Assembly: GCA_943788235.1 (NCBI GenBank)
Contig: CALSPM010000001.1
Span: forward strand, 62,001-126,000
DNA: 64,000 nt
Reading direction: 5' to 3'
Source: an uncultured Cyclobacteriaceae bacterium
Lineage (GTDB): Bacteria; Bacteroidota; Bacteroidia; Cytophagales; Cyclobacteriaceae
Shown: in pieces, positions 41,963-57,989 of the stretch
How positions within the stretch are numbered: position 1 is the first letter of the stretch
How the letters are laid out: the number at the start of each line of letters is the position of its first letter
Made by a program: the position numbers and the translations under genes
The notes under the pieces: model-generated
The model's input: the letters and a program-made list of their open reading frames with translations, nothing else
The model's database searches: none
Told to the model about the DNA's origin: nothing

Positions 41963-42217
41963 CACCTCGAATAAGATCTAAGTATAATATTGATAGCCTT
42001 ATGATTGCTCCAAAAAGATGTAGTGAGGCATGGTTCTAAAACTTAGGGGGATTAAGGATTTAGGTTAAGGATCTCGAAATAGAATGATATCTTGATGTTG
42101 ACATTAATTTCTATAATTGAATGATTCTAACATTTAAAACTAAGCAATAGGAAAGCTAACTTTTTATTCAAATAACTATGTACTGACGCTCGGGTGATCG
42201 ATATTTGAGGATCATCA

Positions 42218-42763
42218 ATGGATTCTTCCACGGAGTATATGAAAGATATAGAAACTTGTATTGCTAATTTCTACAAAAAAGATGACGAAGTCTACCTCAA
42301 TGTAGCAGCCTTAGCTCAAATAGGAGGTCCCGAAGTCATTGAACGTTTGTTGACATTACTCTACGAAGAAGATCTAGATATTCAATATCTGGCCGTCAAT
42401 ACCCTTGCTCAAATAGAAGACAATCAATCGGCATTGTCAGGGTTATTTGCGGCCATTCATGACCCTAAGCTAAAAGCACGTAATGGGAGTTTGGTCGAGG
42501 CCCTTGAGAGTTTTGATGTCAGCGATCATTTTGTAGATATTCTTAAGTTATATCTCAATGGAGGTCTGAAAGCAGCAGCGATGGCAAAGCTTTTGCTAGA
42601 CTATACAGAATTTAACATTAGCTCTCGTACTCTTAAAAAAGCCAAAAAACACGTCCACCATTTTGTTCACAATAGTCTCAAAGATGACCGTTATGAAACA
42701 AAAATGATTGAGGTAACGGCGATTATTAATGATTTAGAGGTTTTGATTGATGAGGCACAATAG
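42218..42763 (+). CDS. HEAT-repeat-like small protein
   Basis: A 181-residue helical protein with HEAT-like pairs: YLNVAALAQIGGPEVIERLLTLL is a full repeat, followed by LDIQYLAVNTLAQIED and a degenerate third copy. No catalytic residues, signal or membrane segment. Its stop is 11 bases before the flavin oxidase gene, so the two are probably co-transcribed. HEAT repeats mediate protein contacts; the partner is unknown. The 255 bases before it hold no gene. Confidence 0.65.
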   Translation: MDSSTEYMKDIETCIANFYKKDDEVYLNVAALAQIGGPEVIERLLTLLYEEDLDIQYLAVNTLAQIEDNQSALSGLFAAIHDPKLKARNGSLVEALESFDVSDHFVDILKLYLNGGLKAAAMAKLLLDYTEFNISSRTLKKAKKHVHHFVHNSLKDDRYETKMIEVTAIINDLEVLIDEAQ

Positions 42764-42774
42764 CGCACATATCG

Positions 42775-43932
42775 ATGGAACAATATGATGTCATTGTCGT
42801 AGGTGTTGGGTCTATGGGCTCAGCGACCCTTTGTGATTTGGCCAAAAAAGGGTTGAAGGTATTGGGATTGGAACAGTTCACACTGGCCAATGAGTTGTCG
42901 AGCCATACGGGTCAAAGTAGGCTGATTCGATTGGCTTATTTTGAGCACCCCAATTATGTTCCCCTACTTAAAAAAGCTTATGCTGGGTGGAGGCAAATTG
43001 AGGTAGATGCTGGTGTTAGCTTGTTGCATCAGACGGGTATTGCTTATTATGGAAAATCCGGAGGTCCTTTGATTTCAGGGATTCAGTCTTCGGTTTCCGC
43101 GCATGACTTGAATATGACATCGATATCAACGGATCATTATACACCTCTACAGATCCCTAAAGATTATAAGGGTTTATTTGAAGAGGTGGCAGGATTTATT
43201 ACTCCTGAAAAAGCCATACGGACCTATGCCCAACAAGCCTTGAAGCAGGGCGCAGTTCTTAGACAAAATGAAAGGGTGATCTCATGGCAGCAACACCCCA
43301 ACCACATAGCTGTCCAAACGGATCAGGGCAGTTATCATACAGAAAAATTGATTTTAACTGCTGGTCCTCACATCCAATCGTTGTTACCCAGCTTCAAACC
43401 CAAGTTAACGATTACAAGGCAGTTGATTGGGTGGTTGAATCCCTCTTGTTGGCAAGATTTTTCAATAGATGATTTTCCATGTTGGGTGATCGAGGAGGAG
43501 GGAATACCGGGGATTTATTATGGCTTCCCTATCTTGCCCATTGAAGGATTTGCTGGACCTATAGGTTTAAAAATAGCCTACCATGCTCCAGGAGAAGTTA
43601 TCGAGCCTGAACAGGTAAAATCGTTTAACGGGTCGCAGGAAGCTGAACGACTTTTGGCGGCAAGTCGACGTTATTTTCGGGATCAGAAGATGACAATCCT
43701 TAATATAAGTAGCTGTATGTATACTTATTCTTCAGATGATGATTTTATTATAGACTACTTACCGCACACAGATGAAAAAATTATTTTAGCAACGGGTTTT
43801 AGTGGTCATGGATTCAAATTTGTCCCCGCCATAGGTGACGTCCTCTCGAAGATGGCCAGAGGATTAAGTGTAGAGGTAGACCTAACCTTTTTATCGATAG
43901 ATCGTTTTGGGGATCAAGAGTATTTAACTTAA
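42775..43932 (+). CDS. Sarcosine oxidase / N-methyl-tryptophan oxidase family flavoenzyme
   Basis: A monomeric sarcosine-oxidase-like enzyme (MSOX/MTOX) that oxidises secondary amines such as N-methyl amino acids, giving H2O2. It has the FAD motif VVGVGSMGSATL, the SSHTGQSRLIRLAYFEHPNYV segment, and the cysteine that binds FAD covalently in this group, in NISSCMYTYSSDDDFIID. The end ATGFSGHGFKFVPAIG is also diagnostic. Length 385 is normal. Near the hydroxyproline genes it may act on a cyclic imino acid (pipecolate-type) instead of sarcosine; that is inference. Confidence 0.87.
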   Translation: MEQYDVIVVGVGSMGSATLCDLAKKGLKVLGLEQFTLANELSSHTGQSRLIRLAYFEHPNYVPLLKKAYAGWRQIEVDAGVSLLHQTGIAYYGKSGGPLISGIQSSVSAHDLNMTSISTDHYTPLQIPKDYKGLFEEVAGFITPEKAIRTYAQQALKQGAVLRQNERVISWQQHPNHIAVQTDQGSYHTEKLILTAGPHIQSLLPSFKPKLTITRQLIGWLNPSCWQDFSIDDFPCWVIEEEGIPGIYYGFPILPIEGFAGPIGLKIAYHAPGEVIEPEQVKSFNGSQEAERLLAASRRYFRDQKMTILNISSCMYTYSSDDDFIIDYLPHTDEKIILATGFSGHGFKFVPAIGDVLSKMARGLSVEVDLTFLSIDRFGDQEYLT

Positions 43933-43974
43933 GATTCTCAGGTTACGGCTATAATGTGTCAGAGGGTACTTGAT

Positions 43975-44763
43975 TTAGGATGAAGAAGATAATTTATCAA
44001 TGGCTTGTTCTAACTTGAGCATGCGATCTTCGAGATAGGTGGGAGGATTGGTTTTTTCGCTAAAAATGCCGATGACTTGCCATATTTGCAGGACATTTTC
44101 GATGCGTATTTCTTGCAAAGGATAACTTGGATCATCCGATTTTAATTGAAGGTATTTTTGGTTTACCGAATCCAATCTTTTGGTGAATATACCGGATAGC
44201 GTAACCAAGCTGACGACCTGGCCCAACACTTTTTGTACATCTATTTGACGAACCAATTGGCTAATGAGTACATCACCATGATGGAGTCCTTGTTGTTGAA
44301 ATACCATTTCACTGCCCACCATTTCAAAGCAGATTAAGTAAGATGAAGCGGTCACAGGTATTCCTATTTTGGGCTGTCGTTCTATGAAATCATTGTTTTG
44401 GTGATGAATAACGTAGTCTAAAAATCGATCTTGACCAATCAATGGGGCTGCGGTTGGGGCAGATGAATCAAGGCCCAGATTGTGGGCTTTATCAAGCTTC
44501 TTTTTGATAGATTCAAGGCTGAATATTTCGCTGATAGATAATTCTCGCGTCAATAAAACATCTATAGAAAGTTTAAAATATTTCGCGATTTGAGTCAGAG
44601 TTTCAATTTTTGGTTCAGATCTCCCTTCTTCATATGCGCCAATACTGGGTCGAGATAAGTGAAATAAATGCGCGAATTCAGCCTGGCTTATTTTTTTTAC
44701 CTGACGGATTTTCTTGATGTTTCTACCTATAAAAGATAAGTTTTTGCTAAAATTTTGAGCCAT
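43975..44763 (-). CDS. XRE-family regulator with degenerate S24/LexA-like C-terminal domain
   Basis: The first ~70 residues are a clear HTH_3 domain (IRQVKKISQAEFAHLFHLSRPSIGAYEEGRSEPK). Residues ~125-230 resemble the S24/LexA beta-domain of phage-type repressors (FEMVGSEMVFQQQGLHHGDVLISQ), but the self-cleavage Ser and Lys are not evident. The last 15 residues may form a coiled coil. It is divergent from the YbjN-PspA operon with 148 bases between the two starts, so it is the natural candidate to control that operon and itself. It could also be an ordinary Bacteroidota housekeeping regulator. Confidence 0.82.
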   Translation of the reverse strand: MAQNFSKNLSFIGRNIKKIRQVKKISQAEFAHLFHLSRPSIGAYEEGRSEPKIETLTQIAKYFKLSIDVLLTRELSISEIFSLESIKKKLDKAHNLGLDSSAPTAAPLIGQDRFLDYVIHHQNNDFIERQPKIGIPVTASSYLICFEMVGSEMVFQQQGLHHGDVLISQLVRQIDVQKVLGQVVSLVTLSGIFTKRLDSVNQKYLQLKSDDPSYPLQEIRIENVLQIWQVIGIFSEKTNPPTYLEDRMLKLEQAIDKLSSSS

Positions 44764-44780
44764 GACACAATTTTTATCAC

Positions 44781-44804
44781 AATTTATCGTAAATGTAATA
44801 AATT
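44781..44804. promoter_or_regulatory. Inverted repeat in the XRE-YbjN divergent promoter region
   Basis: AATTTAT (44781-44787) and ATAAATT (44798-44804) are exact inverted arms with 10 bases between, 18 bases ahead of the regulator start. The size and position fit an autoregulatory operator, but the AT-rich background makes chance likely. Confidence 0.25.
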
Positions 44805-44911
44805 TTGACCATCTTCGTAGTCTAAATAAATGTTACAGATCAAAAAAAGAGAATTTTGATTTGAGATATAACTAGATAAGATAGATATTTAATGAAAAAT
44901 ATAATGAACAG

Positions 44912-45307
44912 ATGAATGCATATTTTGATAAAGTAAGAGATTATTTGTTGGAGCTTGATTTTTCAATTATCTCTCGAGATACTGAAGAAGGGATTTTGGT
45001 TGTTGAAAAAGAAGATGAGGGAATGAAAAATGTCGTATTAATTGTCTCAGATCCCATCGTTATTGTGGAGCAATTTTTATTTGAGCTCTCAGATGAGTCA
45101 TTAGAGGTCTATAAAAGGCTATTGATTAAAAATAGAGACATTATTCATGGTGCTTTTGCCATCGATGAATCAGGAAAAAAAGTTTTTTTCCGCAATACCC
45201 ATGAATGTGAAAATTTAGATTTGAATGAGATAGAGGCAACATTAAATGCGTTGGCTTTATTACTCAGTGAGTATACCAATGAAATAATTGAATTTAGTAA
45301 AAAATAA
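44912..45307 (+). CDS. YbjN-like / type III chaperone-fold small protein
   Basis: A 131-residue acidic cytoplasmic protein with the alpha-beta-beta-beta-alpha layout of the YbjN/secretion-chaperone-like fold: helix YFDKVRDYLLEL, strands FSIISRDTEEGILVVEKED, NVVLIVSDPIVIVEQFLF, helix ESLEVYKRLLIKNRD, strand GAFAIDESGKKVFFR, and a final helix. Such proteins are often coded next to PspA. It begins the membrane-stress operon and is 14 bases from pspA. It may be a small chaperone or regulator of the PspA-like protein; that is inference. Confidence 0.7.
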   Translation: MNAYFDKVRDYLLELDFSIISRDTEEGILVVEKEDEGMKNVVLIVSDPIVIVEQFLFELSDESLEVYKRLLIKNRDIIHGAFAIDESGKKVFFRNTHECENLDLNEIEATLNALALLLSEYTNEIIEFSKK

Positions 45308-45321
45308 AAATAGAATAAATC

Positions 45322-46029
45322 ATGAATGTTTTTAAAAGACTTTTTAAAGTAGGTGAGGCCGAGGCACATTCGGCAATGGATCAGTTAGAAAATCCCATTA
45401 AGATGACCGAACAGGGCATTAGGGATTTGAAAAAAGATTTGGATGGGAGCCTTAAGGCCATGGCTGAGGTGAAAGCGATGGCCATCAGATCCAAAAATGA
45501 TTTTCAGACTAATAAAAACAAAGCACAGGACTATGAAAATAAGGCGATTCAATTGCTGAAGAAAGCAGAAGCAGGCGAACTAGATGCCTCTGATGGAGAT
45601 CGATTGGCTGGAGAGGCTTTGGCAAAGAAGGAAGAGTTTTCTCAAGCCATGCAAAGATCCAAGGAAGAGATGATTCGATTCGAGGGTAACGTAGCTCAAC
45701 TAGACGGAAAGATCAAAAAATTAAGGTCCGATGTTAGCACTTTTGAAAATGAATTGAGGACTTTGAAAGCGCGTGTAAAAGTGAGTGAAGCCACATCAAA
45801 GGTAAATAAGCAAATGGCAAATATTGATACCAATAGTACCGTAGCGATGCTTGAGCGAATGAAAGATAAAGTGGCTCAGCAGGAGGCATTAGCAGATGCT
45901 TATGGTGAGATTGCAGGTGAAAGTAAATCTCTCGATAATGAGATTGATACAGCTTTGGGAGATAGTTCCAATGTTAAGGCAGCGGATGATTTGGCCGCAA
46001 TGAAAGCCAAGTTAGGTCTCAAAAAATAA
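45322..46029 (+). CDS. pspA: PspA/IM30 family membrane-stress protein
   Basis: A 235-residue ESCRT-III-like coiled-coil protein that binds and repairs stressed inner membranes. It shows the family start VFKRLFKVGEAEAHSAMDQLENPIKMTEQGIRDL and long heptad helices through about residue 180 (LRSDVSTFENELRTLKARVKVSEA). It ends KAADDLAAMKAKLGLKK, like PspA of the YjfJ branch. Normal length. There is no pspBC or pspF in the window, so control must be by another route, possibly the divergent XRE protein. It is followed 29 bases later by a tiny membrane peptide gene. Confidence 0.92.
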   Translation: MNVFKRLFKVGEAEAHSAMDQLENPIKMTEQGIRDLKKDLDGSLKAMAEVKAMAIRSKNDFQTNKNKAQDYENKAIQLLKKAEAGELDASDGDRLAGEALAKKEEFSQAMQRSKEEMIRFEGNVAQLDGKIKKLRSDVSTFENELRTLKARVKVSEATSKVNKQMANIDTNSTVAMLERMKDKVAQQEALADAYGEIAGESKSLDNEIDTALGDSSNVKAADDLAAMKAKLGLKK

Positions 46030-46058
46030 TAAATAATTAAAAATATATTTTTTTTTAA

Positions 46059-46202
46059 ATGGATATTTTTAAGGCGATATTAATCATTATCGCCGCTTTT
46101 TTTGTCTTTGGTTTTGTTTTTTCTATCCTATTTAAGATAGGATTGATCTTATTGTTGTTGTTATTGGTGATGTATGTTTTTAAAAAGGTATTTTTAGAAT
46201 AA
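46059..46202 (+). CDS. 47-residue membrane peptide between pspA and DUF4178 gene
   Basis: A short open frame of 47 codons plus stop starting at ATG 46059. The peptide MDIFKAILIIIAAFFVFGF continues with VFSILFKIGLILLLLLLVMY and ends VFKKVFLE: almost entirely hydrophobic, two short or one long membrane segment, with basic residues near the end. Its stop overlaps the next start by one base (TAATG), showing coupled translation. The codon choice is like its neighbours. Small TM peptides are common partners of PspA systems (PspB, PspC-like), but no homology is claimed. Confidence 0.75.
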   Translation: MDIFKAILIIIAAFFVFGFVFSILFKIGLILLLLLLVMYVFKKVFLE

Positions 46203-46741
46203 TGTTTGATTTTTTCAAGAAAAAGAAGGCGCCCGCTTACGATGTGACCAATCTGTCACTCAAAGATCTCAATGTTGGATTTATCTTTGACTATGACATG
46301 AAGTCATGGGTAGTTAAGGAAGTATATAAATACGATTGGGGCAATAATAATTTTACCAGTGAGTATAAAGTCGATAGCGGTGATGAAGTAGCATTTTTGC
46401 ATATTGCAGATGAGGGTGAACTTGAGATATCATTGAGCAAATCGATTCGGCTGAGTAAAATTGACGAGGCGATAGTAGATGAAATAGAAAAGAATCAAAA
46501 ACCCCCTAGGAAAATACATTTCAATGAAAAATTATATTTTTTGGAGGAAGATGCCGCGGGCTATTTTCGGGATTTGAGCAAGGAGACCGAAGACTGGGAA
46601 GCGTTAATTTCTTGGGAATACTTGAATGATGAAGCCACCAATGTACTATCTATTACCCAATGGGACATAAGAAATATTGAGGCTTCTGCGGGTTTAATTT
46701 TAAAGGAGTATCAATTTTCCAACATTATACCTAGTGAATAG
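46202..46741 (+). CDS. DUF4178 domain protein
   Basis: A 179-residue cytoplasmic protein of the DUF4178 family: a beta-rich domain with LSLKDLNVGFIFDYDMKSWVV, VYKYDWGNNNFTSEYKV, FLHIADEGELEISLSKSI and the end WEYLNDEATNVLSITQW, all typical. The function of DUF4178 is unknown; its genes are often next to DUF350, spermidine synthase and PspA-like genes. The start overlaps the stop of the 47-residue peptide gene. The next gene is 24 bases downstream. Confidence 0.85.
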   Translation: MFDFFKKKKAPAYDVTNLSLKDLNVGFIFDYDMKSWVVKEVYKYDWGNNNFTSEYKVDSGDEVAFLHIADEGELEISLSKSIRLSKIDEAIVDEIEKNQKPPRKIHFNEKLYFLEEDAAGYFRDLSKETEDWEALISWEYLNDEATNVLSITQWDIRNIEASAGLILKEYQFSNIIPSE

Positions 46742-46765
46742 CATATTTGTGAATAGATTTGTCTT

Positions 46766-47494
46766 ATGAGAATTGTACGCCCTGTAATCCTTATAATTTT
46801 TTCTTCTCTTGCATCGACCCTGCTCATTAGTTGTGGAGGAGGATTTCAAAAAAGTCCTTTGGATGAGATCATCCGAAATATTCCCCGTGACGAAATGTTC
46901 ACCATTATATTGAATGATATGAACGCAGAAGGCAATTTTTCAAAAAGTTATTACCACAAATACCAAATTATTCGAGACAATCAAGTAGATAACGCCAGAG
47001 AGGTTGTTTCTGATTGGCATGAGGTGGGAGAGAAAGAATTTACTAATTATATCAATGACATGGGTATGGAGATTGCTTCTCGAGACAGTACGGGAAAACT
47101 GACCAAGACGGTAGCGCCTCCAGGGTACAACAACTATGTAGGTAATCAGAAATATGGGAGATGGGAAAGTCGAGGTGGATCCAGCTTTTGGGCCTTTTAT
47201 GGTCAATATGCCTTCATGTCTAGTATGTTAAGAATGGGTAGTTATCCCGTCAGCAGAGGTTATTATAGCGATTGGAGAGGTAATTATGCGGGAACCAATC
47301 GCAGATATTATGGTCCAAGTAGCGGTGGAAGATCTTATTACGGGACCAACAGTGCTTACAATAATAGTAGAAATAGCCGATCTACATGGGGCTCAAAAAG
47401 TACTTCTTTCAAAAATAATGTAACGAGTCGAACTTCAAGATCAAGTGGTAGCTTCGGAAGCTCTCGGTCTTCAGGGGGCGGTTACGGTAAATAA
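46766..47494 (+). CDS. Ser/Gly-rich lipoprotein of the PspA-DUF4178 operon
   Basis: A 242-residue lipoprotein: signal ILIIFSSLASTLLISC with lipobox cysteine at residue 23. A folded part (SPLDEIIRNIPRDEMFTIILNDM, then VAPPGYNNYVGNQKYGRW) is followed by a tail of about 80 residues rich in Ser, Gly, Tyr and Arg (GGRSYYGTNSAYNN and similar), probably disordered and able to lie on the outer membrane or peptidoglycan. It resembles lipoproteins found with DUF350 (YjfM type), but I do not recognise a named family. It is likely the periplasmic member of the membrane-stress system. Confidence 0.7.
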   Translation: MRIVRPVILIIFSSLASTLLISCGGGFQKSPLDEIIRNIPRDEMFTIILNDMNAEGNFSKSYYHKYQIIRDNQVDNAREVVSDWHEVGEKEFTNYINDMGMEIASRDSTGKLTKTVAPPGYNNYVGNQKYGRWESRGGSSFWAFYGQYAFMSSMLRMGSYPVSRGYYSDWRGNYAGTNRRYYGPSSGGRSYYGTNSAYNNSRNSRSTWGSKSTSFKNNVTSRTSRSSGSFGSSRSSGGGYGK

Positions 47495-47519
47495 ATTCAT
47501 TCTCAAAAGCGCGGAAAAT

Positions 47520-48383
47520 ATGCTTACTATATTGGACGGATTACTCACAACCCTTACTTACATTGCCGTTAGTTTTTTGCTCTTTTTCATTGGAAAAATG
47601 GCCTATCAACTTTTTCATCCGAGAGTAAAAGTGGCTCATGAATTGGTCGAAAATGATAATTTGGCTTTTGCTTTTGCTCACGTGGGTTATTTCATAGGCC
47701 TATTACTAGCTATTGGGAGTGTCATGCTCGGTGAGTCCGAAGGGCTGGTTAATGATCTGATGGGTATCGGAATTTATGGATTGCTATCCATTGTTTTATT
47801 GAACCTTTCTTTGATCATTAATGACAAAATTATTCTATCAAATTTTGATTTGAAAAAAGAGATTTTTGATGACAAAAATGTAGGAACAGGTATTGTAGAA
47901 GGGACAAATGCGATTGCGACGGGCTTGGTCGTTATGGGAGCCATCACAGGAGAAGGGTATGGTGATTCGGGTCCAATAGTTAATGTTTTGGTCTATTGGA
48001 TATTGGGTCAAGTCATTCTTTTTGTAACTTCAAAAATATACAATTTGATGACTTCCTACGATGTTCACGATCATATAGAAAAAGGAAATATTGCCGTTGC
48101 GGTGGGTTATTCTGGAGCCATTATGGCGATCGGTAATCTCATCAACAATGCATTGGCACATGATTTTGACAGTTGGATGGTTACCATTCAAGATGTGGGT
48201 TTTAATGTCATTGTAGGATTTGCTTTTTTGCCTATTGCTCGATTTTTGACTGATAAAATTTTATTGCCGGGTCAAAAGCTTACCGACGAAATTATAAATC
48301 AAGAAGATCCTAACGTAGGAGCAGCGATTGTAGAAGCCTTTGCCTATGCTGGTGGATCGATGCTGATTGTTTGGGCATTATAG
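47520..48383 (+). CDS. Tandem DUF350 membrane protein (YjfL-like)
   Basis: A 287-residue membrane protein with two consecutive DUF350 units. Unit 1 holds LAFAFAHVGYFIGLLLAIGSVM, unit 2 holds IAVAVGYSGAIMAIGNLINNA; each is preceded by a membrane helix and followed by more (about eight spans in all). The open frame could start at GTG 47445 inside the lipoprotein gene, but the ATG at 47520 (MLTILDGLLTTLTY) is 25 bases after that gene and gives a natural N-terminus. DUF350 (YjfL in E. coli) accompanies PspA-like YjfJ there too. Function unknown. Confidence 0.85.
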   Translation: MLTILDGLLTTLTYIAVSFLLFFIGKMAYQLFHPRVKVAHELVENDNLAFAFAHVGYFIGLLLAIGSVMLGESEGLVNDLMGIGIYGLLSIVLLNLSLIINDKIILSNFDLKKEIFDDKNVGTGIVEGTNAIATGLVVMGAITGEGYGDSGPIVNVLVYWILGQVILFVTSKIYNLMTSYDVHDHIEKGNIAVAVGYSGAIMAIGNLINNALAHDFDSWMVTIQDVGFNVIVGFAFLPIARFLTDKILLPGQKLTDEIINQEDPNVGAAIVEAFAYAGGSMLIVWAL

Positions 48384-49924
48384 AATCCTTGAAAAAAACT
48401 TCAACTTTGCTGAAAGTAGCCCTTTTCGCTACGGGATTGGCGGGGATCGTTTCAGAGTATACCATTTCTACCTTAGCTACTTATTTTCTTGGAGACTCTG
48501 TTTTTCAATGGACCATAATTGTTTCCATGATGCTTTTTTCGATGGGCTTAGGCAGTCGATTATCCAAGAAATTCGAAGAGAAATTACTTGAAAAATTCAT
48601 TGCCATAGAGTTTCTACTTTCGATCATCGCCTCAAATGTTACCGTCATCGTGTATGTTTGTTTTGCCTTTTATGGCAATACTACCTTTGTCATTTATTTT
48701 TTGAGTGTGTTCATTGGGCTCTTGATCGGTATGGAAATACCCATTGTCATTCGATTAAATGAAAAATTTGAAAAATTGAAAGTAAATATTTCTTCTGCCT
48801 TGGAAAATGATTATTACGGAAGTTTGGTGGGAGGTATTTTCTTTGCTTTTGTTGGACTGCCTATTTTAGGATTGGTCTACACCCCATTGATCTTGGGGAG
48901 TATTAACTTCATGGTGGCCTTAGTATTGTTGTGGGCCACGTGGGAAGATCTTCAAAAAAAGCAAAAAACGAGATTTCTCACTTATATCGCAGGTGTTCTA
49001 ATCATACTGAGTACATCTGCTCTTCTTTCTAAAGATGTGGTGAATTGGGGCGATCGCATCCGCTATCGTGACTTGGTGGTTTATAGTGAGCAGTCTCGTT
49101 ATCAAAAGATAGTCATGACCTATTCAAAAGGTGATTATTGGTTGTTTCTTAATGGAAATCAACAATTAAGTACCCTTGATGAAGCCTTATATCATGAACC
49201 TCTAGTTCATGCACCCATGGTACTTTCAAAAGAGGCTCGATCCGTATTGGTACTTGGGGGAGGAGATGGGGTAGCGGTACGGGAGTTACTCAAATATCCT
49301 GAAGTGTCCCAAATAGTATTGGTAGATTTGGATCCTGCGGTCACTTCCATGGCTCAAAACCATCCCATTATGTTGGGCATCAATGAAAATTCTTTGAATG
49401 ATGATCGGGTCACGGTAATCAATCAAGATGGTTTTCAATTTTTAGCAGAAACTCAAGTACGATTTGATGTAGTAATTGCTGATTTTCCAGATCCTAGAAC
49501 GGTAGATCTTGGACGTCTGTATTCTCGTGAATTTTACGGCTTAGTATATAAAGTATTGAATGAAAGAGGGATGATGATTACGCAAGCAGGCAGTCCCTAT
49601 TATGCGCGTCAAGCTTTTGATTGCATTGATCTTACGATACAATCGGTAGGATTTAATACCTTAAAATTACATAATCAAGTCTTATCCTTAGGTGAGTGGG
49701 GTTGGATAATGGGCTCAAAAAAGAAACGAGACCTGAAAAGTGATTTACAATCGGCTTCCTTGGGGTCATTGCCTACGCAGTGGTTGACTGATGCTGCATT
49801 GACAAGAATCTCTTCGTTTGGCGCAGAAGTATTTGAAGCAGATTACTCATCAATCGCCATCAATAGACTGCACGATCCAGTGCTTTACCATTATTACCTC
49901 AATGGGCGGTGGGATCTGTATTAA
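48371..49924 (+). CDS. Membrane-anchored polyamine aminopropyltransferase (spermidine synthase-like)
   Basis: A 517-residue protein of two parts: about seven membrane helices (to residue ~215) and a C-terminal spermidine-synthase-type domain with intact motifs: VLVLGGGDGVAVREL for decarboxylated SAM binding, the acidic VLVDLDPAVTS, NQDGFQFL and the catalytic-region IADFPDPRT. It should transfer an aminopropyl group to a diamine at the membrane surface. The N-terminal beta domain of soluble SpeE is replaced by the membrane part. Start is TTG 48371, overlapping the DUF350 stop, or TTG 48389. Its stop codon overlaps the opposite-strand amine oxidase stop by 4 bases. Confidence 0.88.
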   Translation: MGIIESLKKTSTLLKVALFATGLAGIVSEYTISTLATYFLGDSVFQWTIIVSMMLFSMGLGSRLSKKFEEKLLEKFIAIEFLLSIIASNVTVIVYVCFAFYGNTTFVIYFLSVFIGLLIGMEIPIVIRLNEKFEKLKVNISSALENDYYGSLVGGIFFAFVGLPILGLVYTPLILGSINFMVALVLLWATWEDLQKKQKTRFLTYIAGVLIILSTSALLSKDVVNWGDRIRYRDLVVYSEQSRYQKIVMTYSKGDYWLFLNGNQQLSTLDEALYHEPLVHAPMVLSKEARSVLVLGGGDGVAVRELLKYPEVSQIVLVDLDPAVTSMAQNHPIMLGINENSLNDDRVTVINQDGFQFLAETQVRFDVVIADFPDPRTVDLGRLYSREFYGLVYKVLNERGMMITQAGSPYYARQAFDCIDLTIQSVGFNTLKLHNQVLSLGEWGWIMGSKKKRDLKSDLQSASLGSLPTQWLTDAALTRISSFGAEVFEADYSSIAINRLHDPVLYHYYLNGRWDLY

Positions 49925-51423
49925 AGTGATTGAGCAGCCATAATACCCGAATCAATGGCCTCATAGAGTAGGGGTAGTCGGCCCGTATCCGCTCCGGCAA
50001 ATTTAAAATTTCCTATTTCTGGATAGACGTTGAATAAATAATTAGGAGTGGGTACGGACATGGCGTGTCCCATGACATGAATAAAGGCAGCATCTGGGTG
50101 AATAGGTTCTTTAATCATAGAACCCATGTAGGACAATGTTTCATTGACGATTCGGTCCTTGTGGTCTTCTACGTTCAGTAATTGGCTCCGGTGCTCAGGT
50201 TTGAGACAATAATAGCCCGTAAGACAATGCACTCCTTTAAGGCTTCCTTGATGTTGCACACTTGAATCAATAAACCCCAAAAAGCCGGATTCACTATCGA
50301 GATACTCATTTTGCCAAAAACCATAATTATTTGGTTTTTGCTTCGTCAAAATATTGACAACCATCCAAGGAGTGTATACGTTTTCTTTAAATGGAGAATC
50401 TATTTCTGGAACAATATAAGGAAGGCTGTGTTTTTGGCCAGCGTAAATGAGGGCATCCGTCTTTATTTGCAAACGTTCGTTATGGACGATGTCCAAGACA
50501 TCGACCAAATATCCGGCACCTTTTTTTTCGATATGATAGACCAAATGCTGATTAAGAATTCGTTGTGAGGAGAGCTTTTGATGTATTTTTTTGGTAAAAT
50601 ATTGATTTCCTTCAGGTGCTGAAAAAAGTTCAACAAACTGTTTTTGATAGGGTCTACAGGTATAATAATGTATTCCGGCGAGTGCTGAAACTTGTTGACT
50701 GGTCCCTCCATAATCATCCAACATTTGGTAATCAATGAGTTTTCTAAAATAGGGATCTGTATCAATATTTTGGGCATTCAAAAAGGCATCAAATGTCATG
50801 TGATCTAAATATTGAAGATCAGTGGGAGTCAAGCGCGTAGGCATGACCATACGGCCTTCAAATGGCAGCAATAGGTCCATTAATTTTTGAGAAGTGGCTG
50901 TTTTTGGCATGACCGCTTTTCTCAATCTACCATCTTGAAAACATTGCTGACGACGGATAGGTGGAATAAGGTGTTGGCGATCCTTGAAGGACCAACTGTC
51001 ATTCCATGCTTGATATTCAATAATCCCCAACTGTTCAAACATTTTCAAGACCTCTGCTCCATAGTAGGCAGGGTAGGCCAAATCATAATGCGCACCTCGA
51101 CCTAAGGCGATGCCTTGATAATCATTGGCAGAGGAGGAGCCTCCATAGCGATCATCGAGTTCTACAAGTAGGTAATCTTTATGTTTCAAAGTATGGGCAG
51201 CTGCCATACCTGCGAGGCCGCCACCTACGATCAGGATTTCGGTTTGACGTTTTTTACTGATCCCAAGGGCGAGGGTATTTTTTATTAAATGTCCAGATTG
51301 GGCCAATGAAGAAACTGAAATAGGGAAGTCGTTTCCATTCAAGAAATCAGAATGACAAGAAGTCAGCCAGAATGGTACTGAAAGGCCTAAGGCTGTTTTT
51401 TTGATGAATTTTCTGCGCTCCAA
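49921..51423 (-). CDS. FAD-dependent amine oxidase-like lipoprotein
   Basis: A 500-residue flavoprotein of the amine oxidase (MAO/PAO) superfamily. MERRKFIKKTALGLSVPF is a Tat signal (RR plus hydrophobic run) ending in a lipobox cysteine, LTSCHS, so it is probably an exported, folded lipoprotein. The FAD motif is EILIVGGGLAGMAAAHTL, followed by VELDDRYGGSS, and the C-terminus has KFAGADTGRLPLLYEAIDSG, the family's flavin-closing segment. In context a polyamine oxidase role in the periplasm is plausible; the substrate is unproven. TTG start directly abuts the stop of the upstream aminopropyltransferase-like gene. Confidence 0.8.
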   Translation of the reverse strand: MERRKFIKKTALGLSVPFWLTSCHSDFLNGNDFPISVSSLAQSGHLIKNTLALGISKKRQTEILIVGGGLAGMAAAHTLKHKDYLLVELDDRYGGSSSANDYQGIALGRGAHYDLAYPAYYGAEVLKMFEQLGIIEYQAWNDSWSFKDRQHLIPPIRRQQCFQDGRLRKAVMPKTATSQKLMDLLLPFEGRMVMPTRLTPTDLQYLDHMTFDAFLNAQNIDTDPYFRKLIDYQMLDDYGGTSQQVSALAGIHYYTCRPYQKQFVELFSAPEGNQYFTKKIHQKLSSQRILNQHLVYHIEKKGAGYLVDVLDIVHNERLQIKTDALIYAGQKHSLPYIVPEIDSPFKENVYTPWMVVNILTKQKPNNYGFWQNEYLDSESGFLGFIDSSVQHQGSLKGVHCLTGYYCLKPEHRSQLLNVEDHKDRIVNETLSYMGSMIKEPIHPDAAFIHVMGHAMSVPTPNYLFNVYPEIGNFKFAGADTGRLPLLYEAIDSGIMAAQSL

Positions 51424-52617
51424 TTAATTTCTGTTTATTGATCGTTCTTTTTCTATAAAGTATTCCTGTTTACCCATTGACATCATCATCGCCATAGTTT
51501 CATCATTCCACCATTGGGAGGTGAAAGGTTTACGCGCATCTCTGAGCGCAGTGGCCAGTTGAGTGCTTGAATATTTCCTTGATGCCAAAACCCAACCTAT
51601 TTGCCCAATAGTAGGAATTTGTAAGTGATAGGGGACGGTTCCGTAATTTAATACCATTATTTGATCGGTATAGGTTTTAAATAATTCGGGTTGTTTATAG
51701 ATATCTCCCATTTGGGTCAAGAGAAAACCTGTGGTATCCAACTTACTCAGTAATTTTTCGGTAAAATAGGGTTGCATAAAAGCGTGCATTTCCAAACTAC
51801 TTACTGGGTCAAATAAATCAATGATGATGGCGTCAAATTGTAAGGTCGTGGTCTCTACAAATGAACTAATATTTTGATCGATGAGGGTCCATTGCTCGTG
51901 ATTTAAATCTGTCAGTTGATGCTGGAGAAAACCGATATCATAGGGGACTATATGCAATGATTGATAGCTATATTGAGATTTTATCAACTGCTGAGCGAGG
52001 ACAGCATTGTCGCCACCTACAATCAATATATCGGCTTTTTCAGGGAGTACTTGTAATAAGGGATATAAGGTGGCCTCACCGTACATACTTTGATCAGGGG
52101 TAGCCGTGCTTAATCGACCATTGTAATAGGTCCACTGATCGTCGTTCCATCGAACTTGATCGATGACTCCTTTTCGTGTTTTTATAGATGAAATGACATT
52201 TTCTGTATAATTTTTTTGGTTGGGTAAAAAAGCAAAAGGGATCATCCAAACAAGAATAGCGATGAGCATGGGTAGTAAGAGCCACTTTATTTTTAATTGG
52301 GTTCCCATAAACACAATGGTCATGGCCATGACATTGACCCATACCCATCCATGATCAGTTATTCCGATCAAATATTGGGTCAAATGATAGGATCCTAAAA
52401 TCATAGCGATGAGGCACAGAGAGCTAAAAAATGTAAAGAAGTTGTTTTTAAAGGGAGCAATAGGAGCAAAGAGGAGGGCCATTAGAGGCAATAAAATAAA
52501 AAACCAAAAAGCCATTTGATTTGGAGTGCGGAACTCAAAAAAATGTGCAGACAGTTGGTGGAACCAATAGCCGGTCAGTCCAAAGAAAATGAAGGAGGCT
52601 AAAAGTGATTTTTTCAA
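51424..52617 (-). CDS. Degenerate membrane-anchored aminopropyltransferase paralogue
   Basis: A 397-residue protein with the same design as the gene at 48371: about five membrane helices (to residue ~135) and a spermidine-synthase-like Rossmann domain. The cofactor loop is ILIVGGDNAVLAQQL, so the GGGDG signature is altered; the usual acidic ribose ligand strand reads HIVPYDIGFL, but IIIDLFDPVSS keeps the DP motif. It may have lost or changed substrate use, or act as a partner of the intact enzyme. The TTG start overlaps the K+ channel stop (TTGA). Confidence 0.8.
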   Translation of the reverse strand: MKKSLLASFIFFGLTGYWFHQLSAHFFEFRTPNQMAFWFFILLPLMALLFAPIAPFKNNFFTFFSSLCLIAMILGSYHLTQYLIGITDHGWVWVNVMAMTIVFMGTQLKIKWLLLPMLIAILVWMIPFAFLPNQKNYTENVISSIKTRKGVIDQVRWNDDQWTYYNGRLSTATPDQSMYGEATLYPLLQVLPEKADILIVGGDNAVLAQQLIKSQYSYQSLHIVPYDIGFLQHQLTDLNHEQWTLIDQNISSFVETTTLQFDAIIIDLFDPVSSLEMHAFMQPYFTEKLLSKLDTTGFLLTQMGDIYKQPELFKTYTDQIMVLNYGTVPYHLQIPTIGQIGWVLASRKYSSTQLATALRDARKPFTSQWWNDETMAMMMSMGKQEYFIEKERSINRN

Positions 52618-53381
52618 TCTTTCCCTTCTGATTTTTTTCTAATTTCAGCTTCGAAACCTGAAGCAATAATACCCGCAGGTAAGGCAAAAATACCAACACC
52701 CATAATGGCAATAAATGCACCTAATACCCTACCTATGGAAGTGATGGGATATACATCTCCATAGCCTACAGTAGTCAGTGTAGCTACGCCCCACCACATG
52801 GTCGCTGGAATACTGCTGAATGCATCAGGCTGTACTTCATGCTCTACATAATACATCAGACTAGAGGCCAAGACAAGGACTAATAAAACAATGGTCAGGG
52901 TGACCAAAAGCTCTTCTTTTCTTCTGTTTAAAACATTTGCAATCATTTGAAAGGCTGTAGAATACCTGCCCATTTTGAAGATGCGTACCAATCGAAAGAG
53001 TCTTAGGAGCCTTAAGATACGCCCATCAATACTCATAATGAAGGGTAAATAAAAAGGTAAAATAGCAAGCAAATCAATCAATCCAATGGGTGAAAGGATG
53101 AATTGAATCCGGCCTTTCATGGGATGGCGATAGCGTTCAATCAAGGTACAAGTCCATATACGACCGACATATTCCAAGGTAAAGACGACTACCGAAATGA
53201 TCTCAAACCATTCAAAAAAATCTTCATATTTGATGTAGACAGAAGCTACTGTTTCCATGATCACAGCGATCATGTTTAAAATGATCATGATCATTATGAA
53301 CAGATCAAACCGGCGACTGAGTCGATTGTCACCATCGTCTTTCTCAAGTATTTCAAATAAGCCTTTTCTAATTTTTTCCAT
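52614..53381 (-). CDS. Voltage-gated potassium channel (six-TM ion transporter)
   Basis: A 255-residue Kv-type channel subunit. Segments S1-S6 are visible, with the S4 voltage sensor RILRLLRLFRLVRIFKM and the pore loop ATLTTVGYGDVYPIT carrying the K+ selectivity filter TVGYGD. The frame extends to a TTG at 53411, but the ATG at 53381 (MEKIRKGLFEIL) is chosen; even so it overlaps the speD end by 14 bases. It should form tetramers in the inner membrane. Polyamines are known blockers of K+ channels, so a functional tie to the surrounding genes is possible. Confidence 0.93.
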   Translation of the reverse strand: MEKIRKGLFEILEKDDGDNRLSRRFDLFIMIMIILNMIAVIMETVASVYIKYEDFFEWFEIISVVVFTLEYVGRIWTCTLIERYRHPMKGRIQFILSPIGLIDLLAILPFYLPFIMSIDGRILRLLRLFRLVRIFKMGRYSTAFQMIANVLNRRKEELLVTLTIVLLVLVLASSLMYYVEHEVQPDAFSSIPATMWWGVATLTTVGYGDVYPITSIGRVLGAFIAIMGVGIFALPAGIIASGFEAEIRKKSEGKD

Positions 53382-53664
53382 TTTTGATATATTGATGATA
53401 AGCAACGACAAAGTTTACATACATCTCGCTGTTGCAACTACTGATTTCTAAATAGGCTTTTTGTTCTTCAGGAAAAGTGTGGAGGGCACAATGACTTTCT
53501 GCTAATAACCAAAGAGCGGTATACCCTTGGGGTTCAAAGGTGTGGTCCACAAACTTGAGTACAGTGAATCCAGAGCTAATGATGAGTCCTTCAACATCTT
53601 TCTTTAATTGATGATCTGTTGAGTAGGTCATCCAAGATGAAAAATTATCAATTTTTGCTTCCAA
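53368..53664 (-). CDS. speD: S-adenosylmethionine decarboxylase (SpeD, short bacterial type)
   Basis: A pyruvoyl enzyme that makes decarboxylated SAM, the aminopropyl donor for spermidine synthesis. The proenzyme self-cleaves before S57 in AESHCALHTFPE, matching the SESH-type site of class 1B SpeD; the ALHTFPE histidine and the later SSCN cysteine fit the proton-donor positions. At 98 residues it is slightly shorter than usual (~120). The only usable start is TTG 53664. It is the first gene of a minus-strand operon with the K+ channel, aminopropyltransferase paralogue and amine oxidase. Confidence 0.88.
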   Translation of the reverse strand: MEAKIDNFSSWMTYSTDHQLKKDVEGLIISSGFTVLKFVDHTFEPQGYTALWLLAESHCALHTFPEEQKAYLEISSCNSEMYVNFVVAYHQYIKNGKN

Positions 53665-53751
53665 TAATGTGTTTTTTAAGCCTCCTTGTTGGCGATGATT
53701 TTAATTTATAGGCTAAAATAATGTTTGTTCTTCATATGAAAGGTTAATATG

Positions 53752-53759
53752 TATATTTG
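53752..53759 (+). promoter_or_regulatory. Candidate Bacteroidota -7 promoter box (TATATTTG)
   Basis: TATATTTG matches the Bacteroidota sigma-A consensus TAnnTTTG and lies 19 bases ahead of ATG 53779, which supports that start over the upstream ATG 53749. A TTTG at 53724-53727 is about 24 bases upstream, a little farther than the usual -33 spacing. Confidence 0.4.
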
Positions 53760-53778
53760 TTGTGTATCAAATGGAGTT

Positions 53779-54993
53779 ATGAAGCGAAGAATTTTTCTTA
53801 GACAAACGGGCTTGGGCCTTACCGGACTCTTGGGTTTAGAGGTAGTGTTTGCTTCAAGCATACCCAAAGACTATGTTCCTTTGCTGGAACTGCAAGACCC
53901 CTTCAAAAAATTAAAAAAGCACAAGCAGATGGTTGTGTTGAATGACCGTCCATTAAATATGGAAGCTCAGGCTCATTTATTGAATGATGAAGTAACGCCT
54001 GCAGATAAAATGTTTGTGAGAAACAATGGAATCACCCCTGAGAAGATAGATGTAAAAGATTGGCAATTGGTCATTGATGGTGAATCTGCACTAAATGCAA
54101 GATCATTTACGATTGATGAGTTAAAAACTACCTTTGATTCATATACCTATCAATTGGTTCTAGAATGCGGAGGTAACGGTCGCAGTGAGTTCAATCCACC
54201 TGCTAAAGGAAATCAATGGACCATTGGAGCGGTATCTTGTGCACGGTGGACAGGTGTAAGATTGCGTGATGTTTTGGAACGTATAGGCGTGAAGGAAGAT
54301 GCCGTCTACTTGGCCTATCATTCTAGAGATCAGCATCTCAGTGGAGATCCCAAAAAAGAAGTCATCTCTCGTGGAATTCCTATTTCAAAGGCAATGATGG
54401 ATGAAACCTTATTGGCCTATCAGATGAATGAAGAAGATCTTCCATTGATTCATGGCCAACCTTTGAGGTTGGTAGTAGGGGGTTGGCCTGCCTCAGCATC
54501 TGGCAAATGGTTGGAACGATTGTCTATAAGAAATATCGTGCATGATGGAGCTAAAATGGGTGGCCAGGCTTATCGGTTACCTTGTGAGAATGTTGCGCCA
54601 GGAACGGTTGTGCTCGACGAAGACATGTGTATCATTGAATCGATGCCCGTTAAGTCTTTATTAACCTATCCAAAAAGTGGTGCCCTTTTAGAGAATCAGA
54701 AAAACATAGAGATCCGGGGCCATGCCTGGGCGGGCGAATTAGCAGTAGCAGCAGTCCACTATTCTATTGATTTTGGTGCTACTTGGGATGTTTGTCATTT
54801 GTCTGCACCCATCAATCGCCTAGCTTGGCAACATTTTAAAGCTGAGATTCAATTTCCAAAGAAAGGTTATTATGAAGTTTGGGTCCGTGCCAGAGATCAA
54901 AATGGAGTAGATCAACCCATGATTTTACCAGGGTGGAATCCTAAAGGATATTTAAACAATGCCTGTCACCGTATAGCGATTAAGGTGGTATGA
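53779..54993 (+). CDS. Sulfite oxidase family molybdoenzyme (SorA/SoxC-like)
   Basis: A periplasmic Mo-pterin enzyme of the sulfite oxidase family. MKRRIFLRQTGLGLTGLLGLE is a Tat signal, so I start at 53779 and not at the in-frame ATG 53749. The molybdenum-ligating cysteine is C130 in LECGGNGRSEF; other signatures are GAVSCARWTGVRLRDVL, HGQPLRLVVGGWPA and the C-terminal dimerisation domain with IRGHAWAGE. The next gene, a monohaem cytochrome, overlaps by 4 bases and is the probable electron acceptor, as in SorAB. Sulfite is the likely but unproven substrate. Confidence 0.9.
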   Translation: MKRRIFLRQTGLGLTGLLGLEVVFASSIPKDYVPLLELQDPFKKLKKHKQMVVLNDRPLNMEAQAHLLNDEVTPADKMFVRNNGITPEKIDVKDWQLVIDGESALNARSFTIDELKTTFDSYTYQLVLECGGNGRSEFNPPAKGNQWTIGAVSCARWTGVRLRDVLERIGVKEDAVYLAYHSRDQHLSGDPKKEVISRGIPISKAMMDETLLAYQMNEEDLPLIHGQPLRLVVGGWPASASGKWLERLSIRNIVHDGAKMGGQAYRLPCENVAPGTVVLDEDMCIIESMPVKSLLTYPKSGALLENQKNIEIRGHAWAGELAVAAVHYSIDFGATWDVCHLSAPINRLAWQHFKAEIQFPKKGYYEVWVRARDQNGVDQPMILPGWNPKGYLNNACHRIAIKVV

Positions 54994-55373
54994 AAACAGG
55001 GTCAATATCTACGTTTTTGCTCCTATTGTTAAGCTTTACATTAATGAAATGCGATCCACTAGAAGGCAAAGTCAAAGAGGCCACATTGCCAGACAGTACG
55101 ATGCTTGGACTGATAGATGATACGGGAGTGCTGCTAGTACTTCAACACTGCAATGCATGCCATTCCACCCAATTGATCAGTCACAACCGGATGAACAAAG
55201 CAGGATGGAAAAGTACGATTCGCTGGATGCAGGCTACCCAAAATTTATGGGATTTAGGTGAAGATGAGGACATTATTTTAACATATTTGGCAAAAAATTA
55301 TGCGCCAAGTGCTATAGGTAGAAGGCAAAGCTTAGTGGTAGAGCAGTGGTATCCGCTAGAGGAAGAAAATTAA
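54990..55373 (+). CDS. Small monohaem cytochrome c lipoprotein (SorB-like)
   Basis: A 127-residue exported protein with one haem site, CNACH at residues 54-58, and a possible lipobox cysteine at 21 (LLLLSFTLMKC). A methionine at residue 71 (RMNKAGW) or 82 could be the distal ligand. It resembles SorB-type subunits of sulfite dehydrogenase and their c-type cytochrome relatives. Translation is coupled to the molybdoenzyme gene (ATGA overlap). It would accept electrons from the Mo centre and hand them to the respiratory chain. Confidence 0.85.
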   Translation: MKTGSISTFLLLLLSFTLMKCDPLEGKVKEATLPDSTMLGLIDDTGVLLVLQHCNACHSTQLISHNRMNKAGWKSTIRWMQATQNLWDLGEDEDIILTYLAKNYAPSAIGRRQSLVVEQWYPLEEEN

Positions 55374-55434
55374 TTTGAGTTTAATAGCCTATTTGTATGT
55401 TAAAATAAAAGTGGTTAAATTAATGTAAACGCAT

Positions 55435-55470
55435 AAAAAAAAACCTGATTCATAGAAGCAGGTTTTTTTT
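55435..55470. terminator. Bidirectional rho-independent terminator
   Basis: AACCTG (55442-55447) pairs with CAGGTT (55459-55464) across an 11-base loop, flanked by a run of A on the left and eight T on the right. It sits between the convergent cytochrome and katG ends and would stop transcripts from both. Confidence 0.85.
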
Positions 55471-55486
55471 ATGTGTAAGCAATAAA

Positions 55487-57735
<2,249 letters not shown>

Positions 57736-57893
57736 TTATATGGTATAAATAATAGAAAGTAAGATTATGGTTTAAATTGACTTGAAAGCATTTTCTCGGT
57801 GAAAAGTTTGTTTCTTAAAGATCAAAAAAATATCGCCCACACACGCTAATTTATTTTTTTAAAAAAGCTGTCAATACAATTAAAACTTTGTTA

Positions 57894-57966: not shown

Positions 57967-57989
57967 ATTAATATTATTTTTGAATCTTA

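What the first reader, a model, noticed from the sequence alone, without database searches (positions are those of the whole stretch)
44912..53664. PspA membrane-stress operon joined to a complete membrane polyamine module
Within 8.8 kb lie YbjN-like, PspA/IM30, a 47-residue membrane peptide, DUF4178, a Ser/Gly-rich lipoprotein, tandem DUF350 and a membrane aminopropyltransferase on the plus strand, and SpeD, a Kv-type K+ channel, a second membrane aminopropyltransferase-like protein and an exported amine oxidase on the minus strand. SpeD makes the aminopropyl donor, the transferase uses it at the membrane, the oxidase could consume the product and polyamines can block K+ channels. E. coli has a loose parallel in its yjf operon (PspA-like YjfJ, DUF350 YjfL, glutathionylspermidine-synthase-like YjfC). 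My inference is a membrane-repair system that makes or senses polyamines at the inner membrane. Parts of this association may already be known from gene-neighbourhood work, but the full set looks mechanistically undescribed.
Basis: partly seen in the sequence, partly recalled or inferred. Interest (0 to 1): 0.85.

Follow-up and report, generated by a model that had tools for sequence, protein, structure and literature searches.

The report
PspA locus with membrane aminopropyl-transfer module
A bacterial membrane-stress gene set sits beside genes that probably attach small charged groups at the membrane and oxidise amines outside it; half of this partnership is already published, but the oxidase half, and its apparently disabled second transferase, look like a new extension.

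Summary
Two convergent, tightly packed gene blocks lie at 44912-53664: CesT/Tir-PspA-47aa peptide-DUF4178-lipoprotein-DUF350x2-membrane aminopropyltransferase (APT1), and SpeD-Kv channel-APT2-flavin oxidase (OX). The plus block is already described (Ravi et al. 2024, PMC11237479). SpeD, a transporter-fused SpdSyn and DUF350 were linked earlier (Li et al. 2019, not readable here). New here: OX is tied to the same system across Bacteroidota. An APT lies within 10 kb in 61 of 80 named OX loci. SpeD and the channel sit in the OX unit in the window's relatives but in the DUF350/PspA unit in Flavobacteriales. In the window clade the OX-linked transferase has lost its donor-binding residues (36 of 52 OX-linked copies), yet keeps the catalytic Asp and is under purifying selection: a probable pseudo-transferase. 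The genome has a CASDH/CASDC-like spermidine route and no other SpeE, so supplying spermidine is an unlikely role. Best mechanism, inferred: APT1 aminopropylates a membrane-associated acceptor, OX oxidises an amine outside, PspA reads or repairs the membrane. Substrates are unknown, and 8 of 30 related genomes with APT1 show no SpeD.

The parts
43975..44763 (-). XRE-type HTH with a C-terminal S24-like domain, divergent from the PspA operon; probable local regulator
   Evidence: Pfam HTH_3 50.5 bits, Peptidase_S24 20.2 bits, under its cut-off of 23.3; a homologue lies within 10 kb in 23 of 80 OX loci; 'GSEM' where S24 proteases have their Ser motif (motif recalled), in 11 of 21 aligned homologues
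44912..45307 (+). CesT/Tir-like chaperone (YbjN-like)
   Evidence: PF22550 171 bits
45322..46029 (+). PspA/IM30 family protein
   Evidence: PF04012 148 bits; the only PF04012 match in the genome
46059..46202 (+). 47-aa hydrophobic peptide, two TM-like stretches
   Evidence: hydropathy; recurs within 10 kb in 16 of 80 OX loci
46202..46741 (+). DUF4178 protein
   Evidence: PF13785 61 bits
46766..47494 (+). lipoprotein with Ser/Gly-rich C-terminus
   Evidence: lipobox-like LISC read directly; homologue within 10 kb in 41 of 80 OX loci
47529..48383 (+). tandem DUF350 membrane protein (ORF opens at 47445; the ATG at 47529 is the likelier start)
   Evidence: PF03994 181 bits, two stretches
48371..49924 (+). 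APT1: membrane domain fused to an aminopropyltransferase domain, donor and catalytic residues intact
   Evidence: NCBIfam NF002956 553 bits (cut-off 472), NF037959 MFS_SpdSyn 51.6 (cut-off 40); residue signature
49921..51423 (-). OX: flavin amine-oxidoreductase with Tat-like Arg-Arg and lipobox-like Cys
   Evidence: AF2 model pLDDT 87.3 with flavin amine-oxidase superfamily matches
51424..52617 (-). APT2: membrane aminopropyltransferase-like protein without the donor-binding residues, catalytic Asp kept
   Evidence: Spermine_synth 39 bits; NF002956 95 bits, under cut-off; N204, P225, N249 at donor positions, D267 and D270 kept
52614..53411 (-). Kv-type potassium channel
   Evidence: PF00520 126 bits; TVGYGD and S4 Arg repeat read directly
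53368..53664 (-). short SpeD (S-adenosylmethionine decarboxylase)
   Evidence: PF02675 55 bits; ESH, His and Cys aligned with solved SpeD 2iii and 1tlu; S57, H62 and C77 invariant in 15 of 15 SpeDs; only PF02675 match in the genome

Best explanation
The two convergent blocks are one functional unit: a PspA-CesT/Tir membrane-maintenance system coupled to membrane-associated aminopropyl transfer and amine oxidation outside the cytoplasm. SHOWN by sequence: the genes, their recurrent linkage, intact donor and catalytic residues in APT1, loss of the donor residues in APT2 and a clade of its kin, a Tat-like motif on OX, and a CASDH/CASDC-like gene pair elsewhere in the genome. INFERRED: SpeD makes dcSAM; APT1 transfers the aminopropyl group at the inner face of the membrane to an acceptor that is not simply putrescine, perhaps an amine of a membrane lipid or protein, working with DUF350; the product, or an amine derived from it, reaches the outer side and is oxidised by exported OX; APT2 here is a pseudo-transferase that binds the product or a partner rather than making it; the K+ channel answers the change in charge or membrane potential; PspA with CesT/Tir assembles on the altered membrane, and the XRE-S24 protein controls expression.
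For: Linkage around 80 OX loci: APT 61, DUF350 47, DUF4178 41, lipoprotein 41, SpeD 39, channel 39, PspA 29 within 10 kb; no cluster without a system protein reaches more than 8 loci. In 32 convergent loci SpeD lies in the OX unit in 14 and in the DUF350/APT unit in 12 (PspA is in view in 9 of these 12); 10 loci have the genes co-directional, 3 of them with PspA in view. Two kinds of K+ channel fill the slot (clusters of 34 and 5 loci; TrkA_N in two proteins of the second type). In 98 family genomes all 16 with OX have APT1 and PspA, 15 have some SpeD, and 14 have OX within 10 kb of an APT. D-type APT keeps the donor residues in 54 of 54 and has the acceptor Tyr in 0 of 54; 36 of 52 OX-linked copies lost the donor residues while all 36 keep D371; one clade, 98/88 on 23 of these rows with donor columns masked. 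dN/dS of APT2 0.18-0.27 against six close relatives. CASDH-like and NspC genes close together.
Against: 13 of 80 OX loci have none of the partners (five of them Poribacteria), so OX or a near relative works elsewhere too. 8 of 30 family genomes with APT1 have no SpeD by two models, four of them 99-100% complete, so dcSAM is not shown to be the donor there. PspA lies within 10 kb of APT1 in 16 of 30 genomes only. The OX fold matches amine oxidases, protoporphyrinogen oxidases, phytoene desaturase and renalase about equally, so its substrate is open; Cys23 is not kept in 90% of a wider OX set. No acceptor, product or phenotype has been measured. Donor and acceptor residue roles are recalled from spermidine synthase structures.
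Confidence: 0.42

Rival explanations
1. Free polyamine cycle: APT1 makes spermidine, spermine or another soluble polyamine; it is exported, binds the envelope and K+ channel, and OX degrades it outside. PspA is induced when polyamine or membrane balance fails. This is.
For: SpeD and APT1 keep their catalytic residues; the OX profile reaches protoporphyrinogen oxidase, SpdH and polyamine oxidases weakly and mostly over the FAD-binding N-terminus (28 bits for SpdH), and the OX model resembles putrescine oxidase and SpdH among others; the APTs that stand between DUF350 and OX keep the acceptor Tyr in 8 of 10.
Against: The genome has its own CASDH/CASDC-like pair; acceptor Tyr in 0 of 54 DUF350-linked APTs; Li et al. 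2019 (abstract recalled, paper not held) reported no spermidine from the related fusion proteins.
Confidence: 0.25
2. Two neighbouring systems: the published PspA-APT1-DUF350 operon, and a separate SpeD-channel-APT2-OX operon that merely lies next to it in some lineages.
For: The APT-OX unit stands without the DUF350/APT1 unit within the flanks held in 18 of 80 loci, some cut by contig ends; in family genomes OX lies within 10 kb of PspA in 8 of 16 and of APT1 in 7 of 16.
Against: SpeD and channel genes swap sides between the units, and 10 loci have the genes co-directional; OX was not found in the 98 family genomes without APT1 and PspA.
Confidence: 0.2
3. APT1 does not use dcSAM but S-adenosylmethionine itself or another donor, so the reaction is not aminopropyl transfer; SpeD serves another step.
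For: 8 of 30 family genomes with APT1 lack detectable SpeD (PF01536 also silent, but so was its control); Asp replaces the SpeE Glu at position 319 in all 54 D-type copies.
Against: The rest of the dcSAM site is intact; SpeD is linked in 39 of 80 OX loci and present in 15 of 16 OX genomes.
Confidence: 0.1

Closest known systems
CesT/Tir-PspA operon with 7TM-spermine synthase, DUF350, Ctha_1186 lipoprotein and DUF4178 (Ravi et al. 2024, PMC11237479, passages read)
   Same: The same set as the window's plus strand; a link to membrane dynamics through polyamines or aminopropylation is already proposed there.
   Different: The passages seen do not mention this operon beside an OX-APT2-Kv block, the membrane protein MB23, the XRE-S24 regulator or loss of the donor site; its tables and figures were not readable here.
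CesT/Tir-PspA with ATP-grasp, K+ channel and DUF350, and its variants with AdoMetDC and polyamine oxidase (same paper, passages read)
   Same: K+ channel, DUF350, AdoMet decarboxylase and an amine oxidase occur there too.
   Different: No ATP-grasp, DUF1190 or DUF2491 match among the 16 neighbouring proteins scanned here; an aminopropyltransferase is present instead, twice.
SpeD with transporter-fused SpdSyn and DUF350 (Li et al. 2019, Biochem J; not held, abstract recalled)
   Same: SpeD, membrane-fused SpdSyn domain and DUF350 together; recalled as not making spermidine.
   Different: OX-linked donor-less paralogue and PspA context not known to me from it; the paper could not be checked.
MprF (lysyl-phosphatidylglycerol synthase; start of the abstract of PMC2774229 seen in a search listing)
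   Same: Works-like idea only: a membrane protein that adds a cationic group to a lipid.
   Different: No sequence kinship tested; other donor chemistry; a lipid acceptor is not shown here.

Membership tests
Ravi et al. 2024 second group (CesT/Tir-PspA-spermine synthase operon) | CesT/Tir-PspA gene pair | tested here: met
   PF22550 171 bits next to PF04012 148 bits
Ravi et al. 2024 second group (CesT/Tir-PspA-spermine synthase operon) | Spermine synthase domain fused to an N-terminal membrane domain | tested here: met
   Spermine_synth 142 bits at residues 272-453; five strong TM stretches before it; the exact number seven was not established
Ravi et al. 2024 second group (CesT/Tir-PspA-spermine synthase operon) | 8TM DUF350 protein and DUF4178 protein in the operon | tested here: met
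   PF03994 two stretches, PF13785 61 bits; hydropathy finds 7 TM-like stretches at the threshold used
Ravi et al. 2024 second group (CesT/Tir-PspA-spermine synthase operon) | Lipoprotein with Ctha_1186 domain | tested here: inconclusive
   Lipoprotein with lipobox-like motif in the expected place; no match in Pfam or NCBIfam, which do not list that domain for it
Ravi et al. 2024 third group (ATP-grasp operon) | Glutathionylspermidine-synthetase-like ATP-grasp gene | tested here: not met
   None among the 16 proteins scanned between 42218 and 55373
SpeD plus transporter-fused SpdSyn system (Li et al. 2019) | Class 1b SpeD with ESH/His/Cys processing and active-site residues | tested here: met
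SpeD plus transporter-fused SpdSyn system (Li et al. 2019) | Fused membrane/SpdSyn protein | tested here: met
   NF037959 51.6 bits, cut-off 40
SpeD plus transporter-fused SpdSyn system (Li et al. 2019) | Does not restore spermidine synthesis | not testable with these tools
   needs expression
Canonical spermidine synthase (SpeE) | dcSAM site and catalytic Asp | tested here: met
   APT1: GGGDG, D319 (Glu in SpeE), D353, D371, D374; APT2 fails at three donor positions
Canonical spermidine synthase (SpeE) | Acceptor-side Tyr (position 438) | tested here: not met
   Tyr in 10 of 10 SpeD-SpeE fusions, Leu in the window APT1 and Tyr in 0 of 54 D-type
Classical Psp system (PspA equivalog) | PspA at the equivalog cut-off | tested here: not met
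   TIGR02977 48.3 bits, cut-off 242.95
Flavin polyamine oxidase | Amine-oxidase superfamily fold with FAD motif | tested here: met
Flavin polyamine oxidase | Polyamine as substrate | not testable with these tools
   amine oxidases, protoporphyrinogen oxidases, phytoene desaturase and renalase score about equally

The most novel reading that the evidence does not exclude
Bacteroidota make a cationic membrane molecule by aminopropylating a lipid (or lipid-anchored) amine with dcSAM, an MprF-like strategy with a new donor, and trim it outside with an exported flavin oxidase. In Cytophagales-like lineages the second transferase has become a pseudoenzyme that holds the product for the oxidase, and PspA and a K+ channel respond to the change in membrane charge.
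Probability: 0.13. Interest if true: 0.88.

Novelty: new variant of a known kind. Interest (0 to 1): 0.5.

Why it matters
The PspA operon with a membrane spermine-synthase-like gene has been described from gene neighbourhoods, but I know of no reaction shown for it. Placing a SpeD, a K+ channel, an oxidase with an export motif, a conserved membrane protein (MB23) and a donor-less paralogue in the same system narrows the chemistry and gives concrete genes to delete in culturable Bacteroidota. If a lipid or protein is aminopropylated, that would be a new membrane modification and a direct answer to what PspA-linked aminopropyltransferases do.

Tried and rejected
Free polyamine supply as the main role: disfavoured by the CASDH/CASDC-like pair and no other SpeE. 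Kinship to YjfJ rather than PspA: BLAST cannot decide. Class 2 SpeD (PF01536) in the 8 SpeD-less genomes and the window's: no match, but its control was silent too, so inconclusive. OX substrate by fold: only the superfamily is clear. MB23 identity: no Pfam family in single proteins and only scattered weak matches (best E 0.027) among 35 members, no NCBIfam family in two members, no PDB match at E <= 0.001 although the model is confident, best VIA Z 6.1 (rmsd 4.8, 180 aligned) to a channelrhodopsin, within the range the tool calls common arrangement. Solved structures for DUF350, the CesT-like protein and, by single sequence, OX: none. Promoter and terminator scans: at shuffled level. Rfam over 40000-58000: nothing. 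The tree relation of donor-less OX-linked copies to intact ones: one clade with the B copies in the first tree (95), not in the second; only the single origin of the donor-less group is firm. That holds for the 23 donor-less rows kept, from which the window's own APT2 and its two near rows were left out as long branches; their place rests and gene order. Literature on aminopropylated lipids: nothing relevant seen in the listings. Rows dropped: of the Spermine_synth places I fetched 54 stretches, leaving out most weak matches and three strong SpeD-SpeE fusions.
Full report
OBSERVATION. The window belongs to a 3.25 Mb genome in 14 contigs. Its close relatives in the named collection are mostly uncultured 'Flammeovirgaceae' or 'Cyclobacteriaceae' bacteria (the contig of L059 has the length of G041:C7, a genome of the same genus). 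Neighbouring reading frames overlap or abut, which suggests two co-transcribed, convergent blocks. A divergent XRE-S24 gene (43975-44763) belongs to the picture.

WHAT IS ALREADY KNOWN. Ravi et al. 2024 (PMC11237479; [quoted passage not shown] That is the window's plus strand. They suggest that such systems monitor polyamines or aminopropylation of other substrates. A third group there has a K+ channel and an ATP-grasp ligase, with variants that carry AdoMet decarboxylase and polyamine oxidase. They cite Li et al. 2019 (Biochem J) for an AdoMet-decarboxylase linkage; that paper is not held, and I recall from its abstract that SpeD and a transporter-SpdSyn fusion co-occur with DUF350 and do not make spermidine. 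Literature searches listed no other paper that I recognised as describing this gene set; most subscription papers are not held.

IS IT ONE SYSTEM? In 98 genomes of the family (drawn evenly, tallied), 30 have the APT1 class (chosen by frame length and score, and scoring high with my profile). Of these 29 have tandem DUF350 (0 of the other 68; five of those have weak single matches), 28 have PspA (10 of the other 68), 16 have OX (0 of 68) and 13 a stand-alone SpeD (0 of 68). Nine more have the SpeD-SpeE fusion, and 8 have no SpeD. All 16 OX genomes have PspA. OX lies within 10 kb of an APT in 14 of 16, of APT1 in 7 and of PspA in 8; APT1 lies within 10 kb of PspA in 16 of 30. Genomes are related, so p-values are guides only.

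An OX alignment found 172 relatives in named genomes; the best 80 were kept, which favours close kin. Within 10 kb: APT 61 of 80, DUF350 47, DUF4178 41, lipoprotein 41, SpeD 39, channel 39, MB23 38, PspA 29, CesT 28, XRE-S24 23, 47-aa peptide 16; 13 have none of them. Some loci are cut by contig ends, so these are lower bounds. No gene cluster without a system protein reaches more than 8 loci. Arrangements (by strand within the stretch held): 32 convergent two-unit, 18 APT-OX alone, 10 co-directional, 1 APT opposite only, 6 OX with DUF350 or MB23 but no APT, 13 none; on 57 representatives at 70% identity: 20, 16, 9, 1, 3 and 8. Of the 10 co-directional loci 3 show PspA (L116, L118, L137). In the 32 convergent loci SpeD is in the OX unit in 14, in the DUF350/APT unit in 12 (9 of them with PspA in view), absent in 6. 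Swapping of SpeD and channel between units inside one locus is the best evidence that the units work together. Two kinds of K+ channel fill the same slot: clusters of 34 and 5 loci, the small one of the kind that carries TrkA_N in the two proteins scanned (L039, L041).

THE TWO TRANSFERASES. Of 152 APT proteins collected, 140 are distinct: 54 next to DUF350 (D), 52 next to OX or MB23 (O), 10 between both (B), 10 SpeD-SpeE fusions (S), 14 others (X). Donor residues (positions 299, 319, 353 of APT1; roles recalled from spermidine synthases) are intact in D 54 of 54, B 10 of 10, S 10 of 10, O 16 of 52, X 8 of 14. The 36 donor-less O copies all keep D371, the catalytic Asp, and D270 and E276. The window's APT2 is one of them (N204, P225, N249; D267 and D270 kept). 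The donor-less copies group together: 31 of them with one likewise donor-less X row, support 95, in a quick tree of 93 rows, and 23 as one clade, 98/88, in a careful tree of 82 rows with donor columns blanked and long rows removed, the window's APT2 among the removed. APT2 is maintained: dN/dS 0.18-0.27 against six close relatives (L058, L060-L064), looser than APT1 at 0.04-0.10. The Tyr that SpeE has on the acceptor side is absent in all 54 D copies, present in 15 of 52 O and 8 of 10 B, which points to a different acceptor for APT1.

POLYAMINE BACKGROUND. The genome has NspC (499 bits, cut-off 409) about 1.7 kb behind the start of a saccharopine-dehydrogenase-like domain (114 bits), the CASDH/CASDC arrangement, and no Spermine_synth match besides the two here. 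So spermidine can probably be made without this locus.

OX AND MB23. OX models well (pLDDT 87.3, signal region poor) as a flavin amine-oxidoreductase; Foldseek's top rows include protoporphyrinogen oxidase, putrescine oxidase and MAO, with SpdH lower, and the VIA-align rows from Z 28.2 (rmsd 4.0, 387 aligned) down to 24.5 at rank 50 hold L-amino-acid oxidase, renalase, phytoene desaturase and MAO. Substrate is therefore open. Its export rests on the Arg-Arg motif (invariant in 40 of 40); the lipobox-like Cys is invariant in the first 14 but not in 90% of the 40. MB23 (about 367 aa) sits between APT and OX, or just before OX, in 38 of 80 loci but not in the window; it has invariant His and Asp residues, a confident model (pLDDT 92.5) and no close solved fold found, which does not prove a new fold.

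MECHANISM AND LIMITS. Cytoplasmic SpeD and an APT catalytic domain behind membrane helices, beside an oxidase with an export motif, suggest a group added inside and an amine oxidised outside. A lipid or protein acceptor is my inference. The strongest problem is that 8 of 30 APT1 genomes have no SpeD by PF02675 or by my own SpeD alignment, which did ring in the three positive genomes; four of the eight are 99-100% complete. Either SpeD is unrecognisable there or the donor differs.

VERDICT. Observation confirmed; interpretation partly supported; core operon known; the OX unit, module swapping and donor-less paralogue are the additions. New variant of a known kind.

Noticed in passing
L074:8905-10008 (and 37 other loci of L058-L137): MB23: a conserved membrane protein with invariant His/Asp/Trp residues next to the oxidase, usually between it and the aminopropyltransferase; no family match in Pfam or NCBIfam scans and no close solved fold found, model pLDDT 92.5. 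Absent from the window.
   Followed up: partly
G012, G091, G025, G071 (L019, L024, L011, L007): Genomes 99-100% complete with an intact-looking APT1 near DUF350 and lipoprotein but no detectable SpeD anywhere.
   Followed up: partly
L103:377-1075 and L110:9298-9987: In two Poribacteria the oxidase homologue directly follows a gene that looks, by its N-terminal sequence alone and by no search, like a glycerophosphodiester phosphodiesterase, a possible hint at a lipid-derived amine.
   Followed up: no
window 43975-44763: XRE-S24 regulator with 'GSEM' in place of the S24 serine motif (11 of 21 aligned homologues), so perhaps a ligand sensor rather than a self-cleaving repressor.
   Followed up: partly
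window 53749-55373: Molybdopterin oxidoreductase (Oxidored_molyb, Mo-co_dimer) followed by a small protein with a CxxCH motif, next to the SpeD end; clusters that look like these two occur in 7 of 80 loci each, probably the window's own genus.
   Followed up: no
window 55487-57726: A reading frame that looks like a catalase-peroxidase (by eye, no search) appears split into three pieces (290, 248 and 262 aa); in L062 a similar frame is open over about 745 aa. Possible frameshift or assembly error in the window.
   Followed up: no
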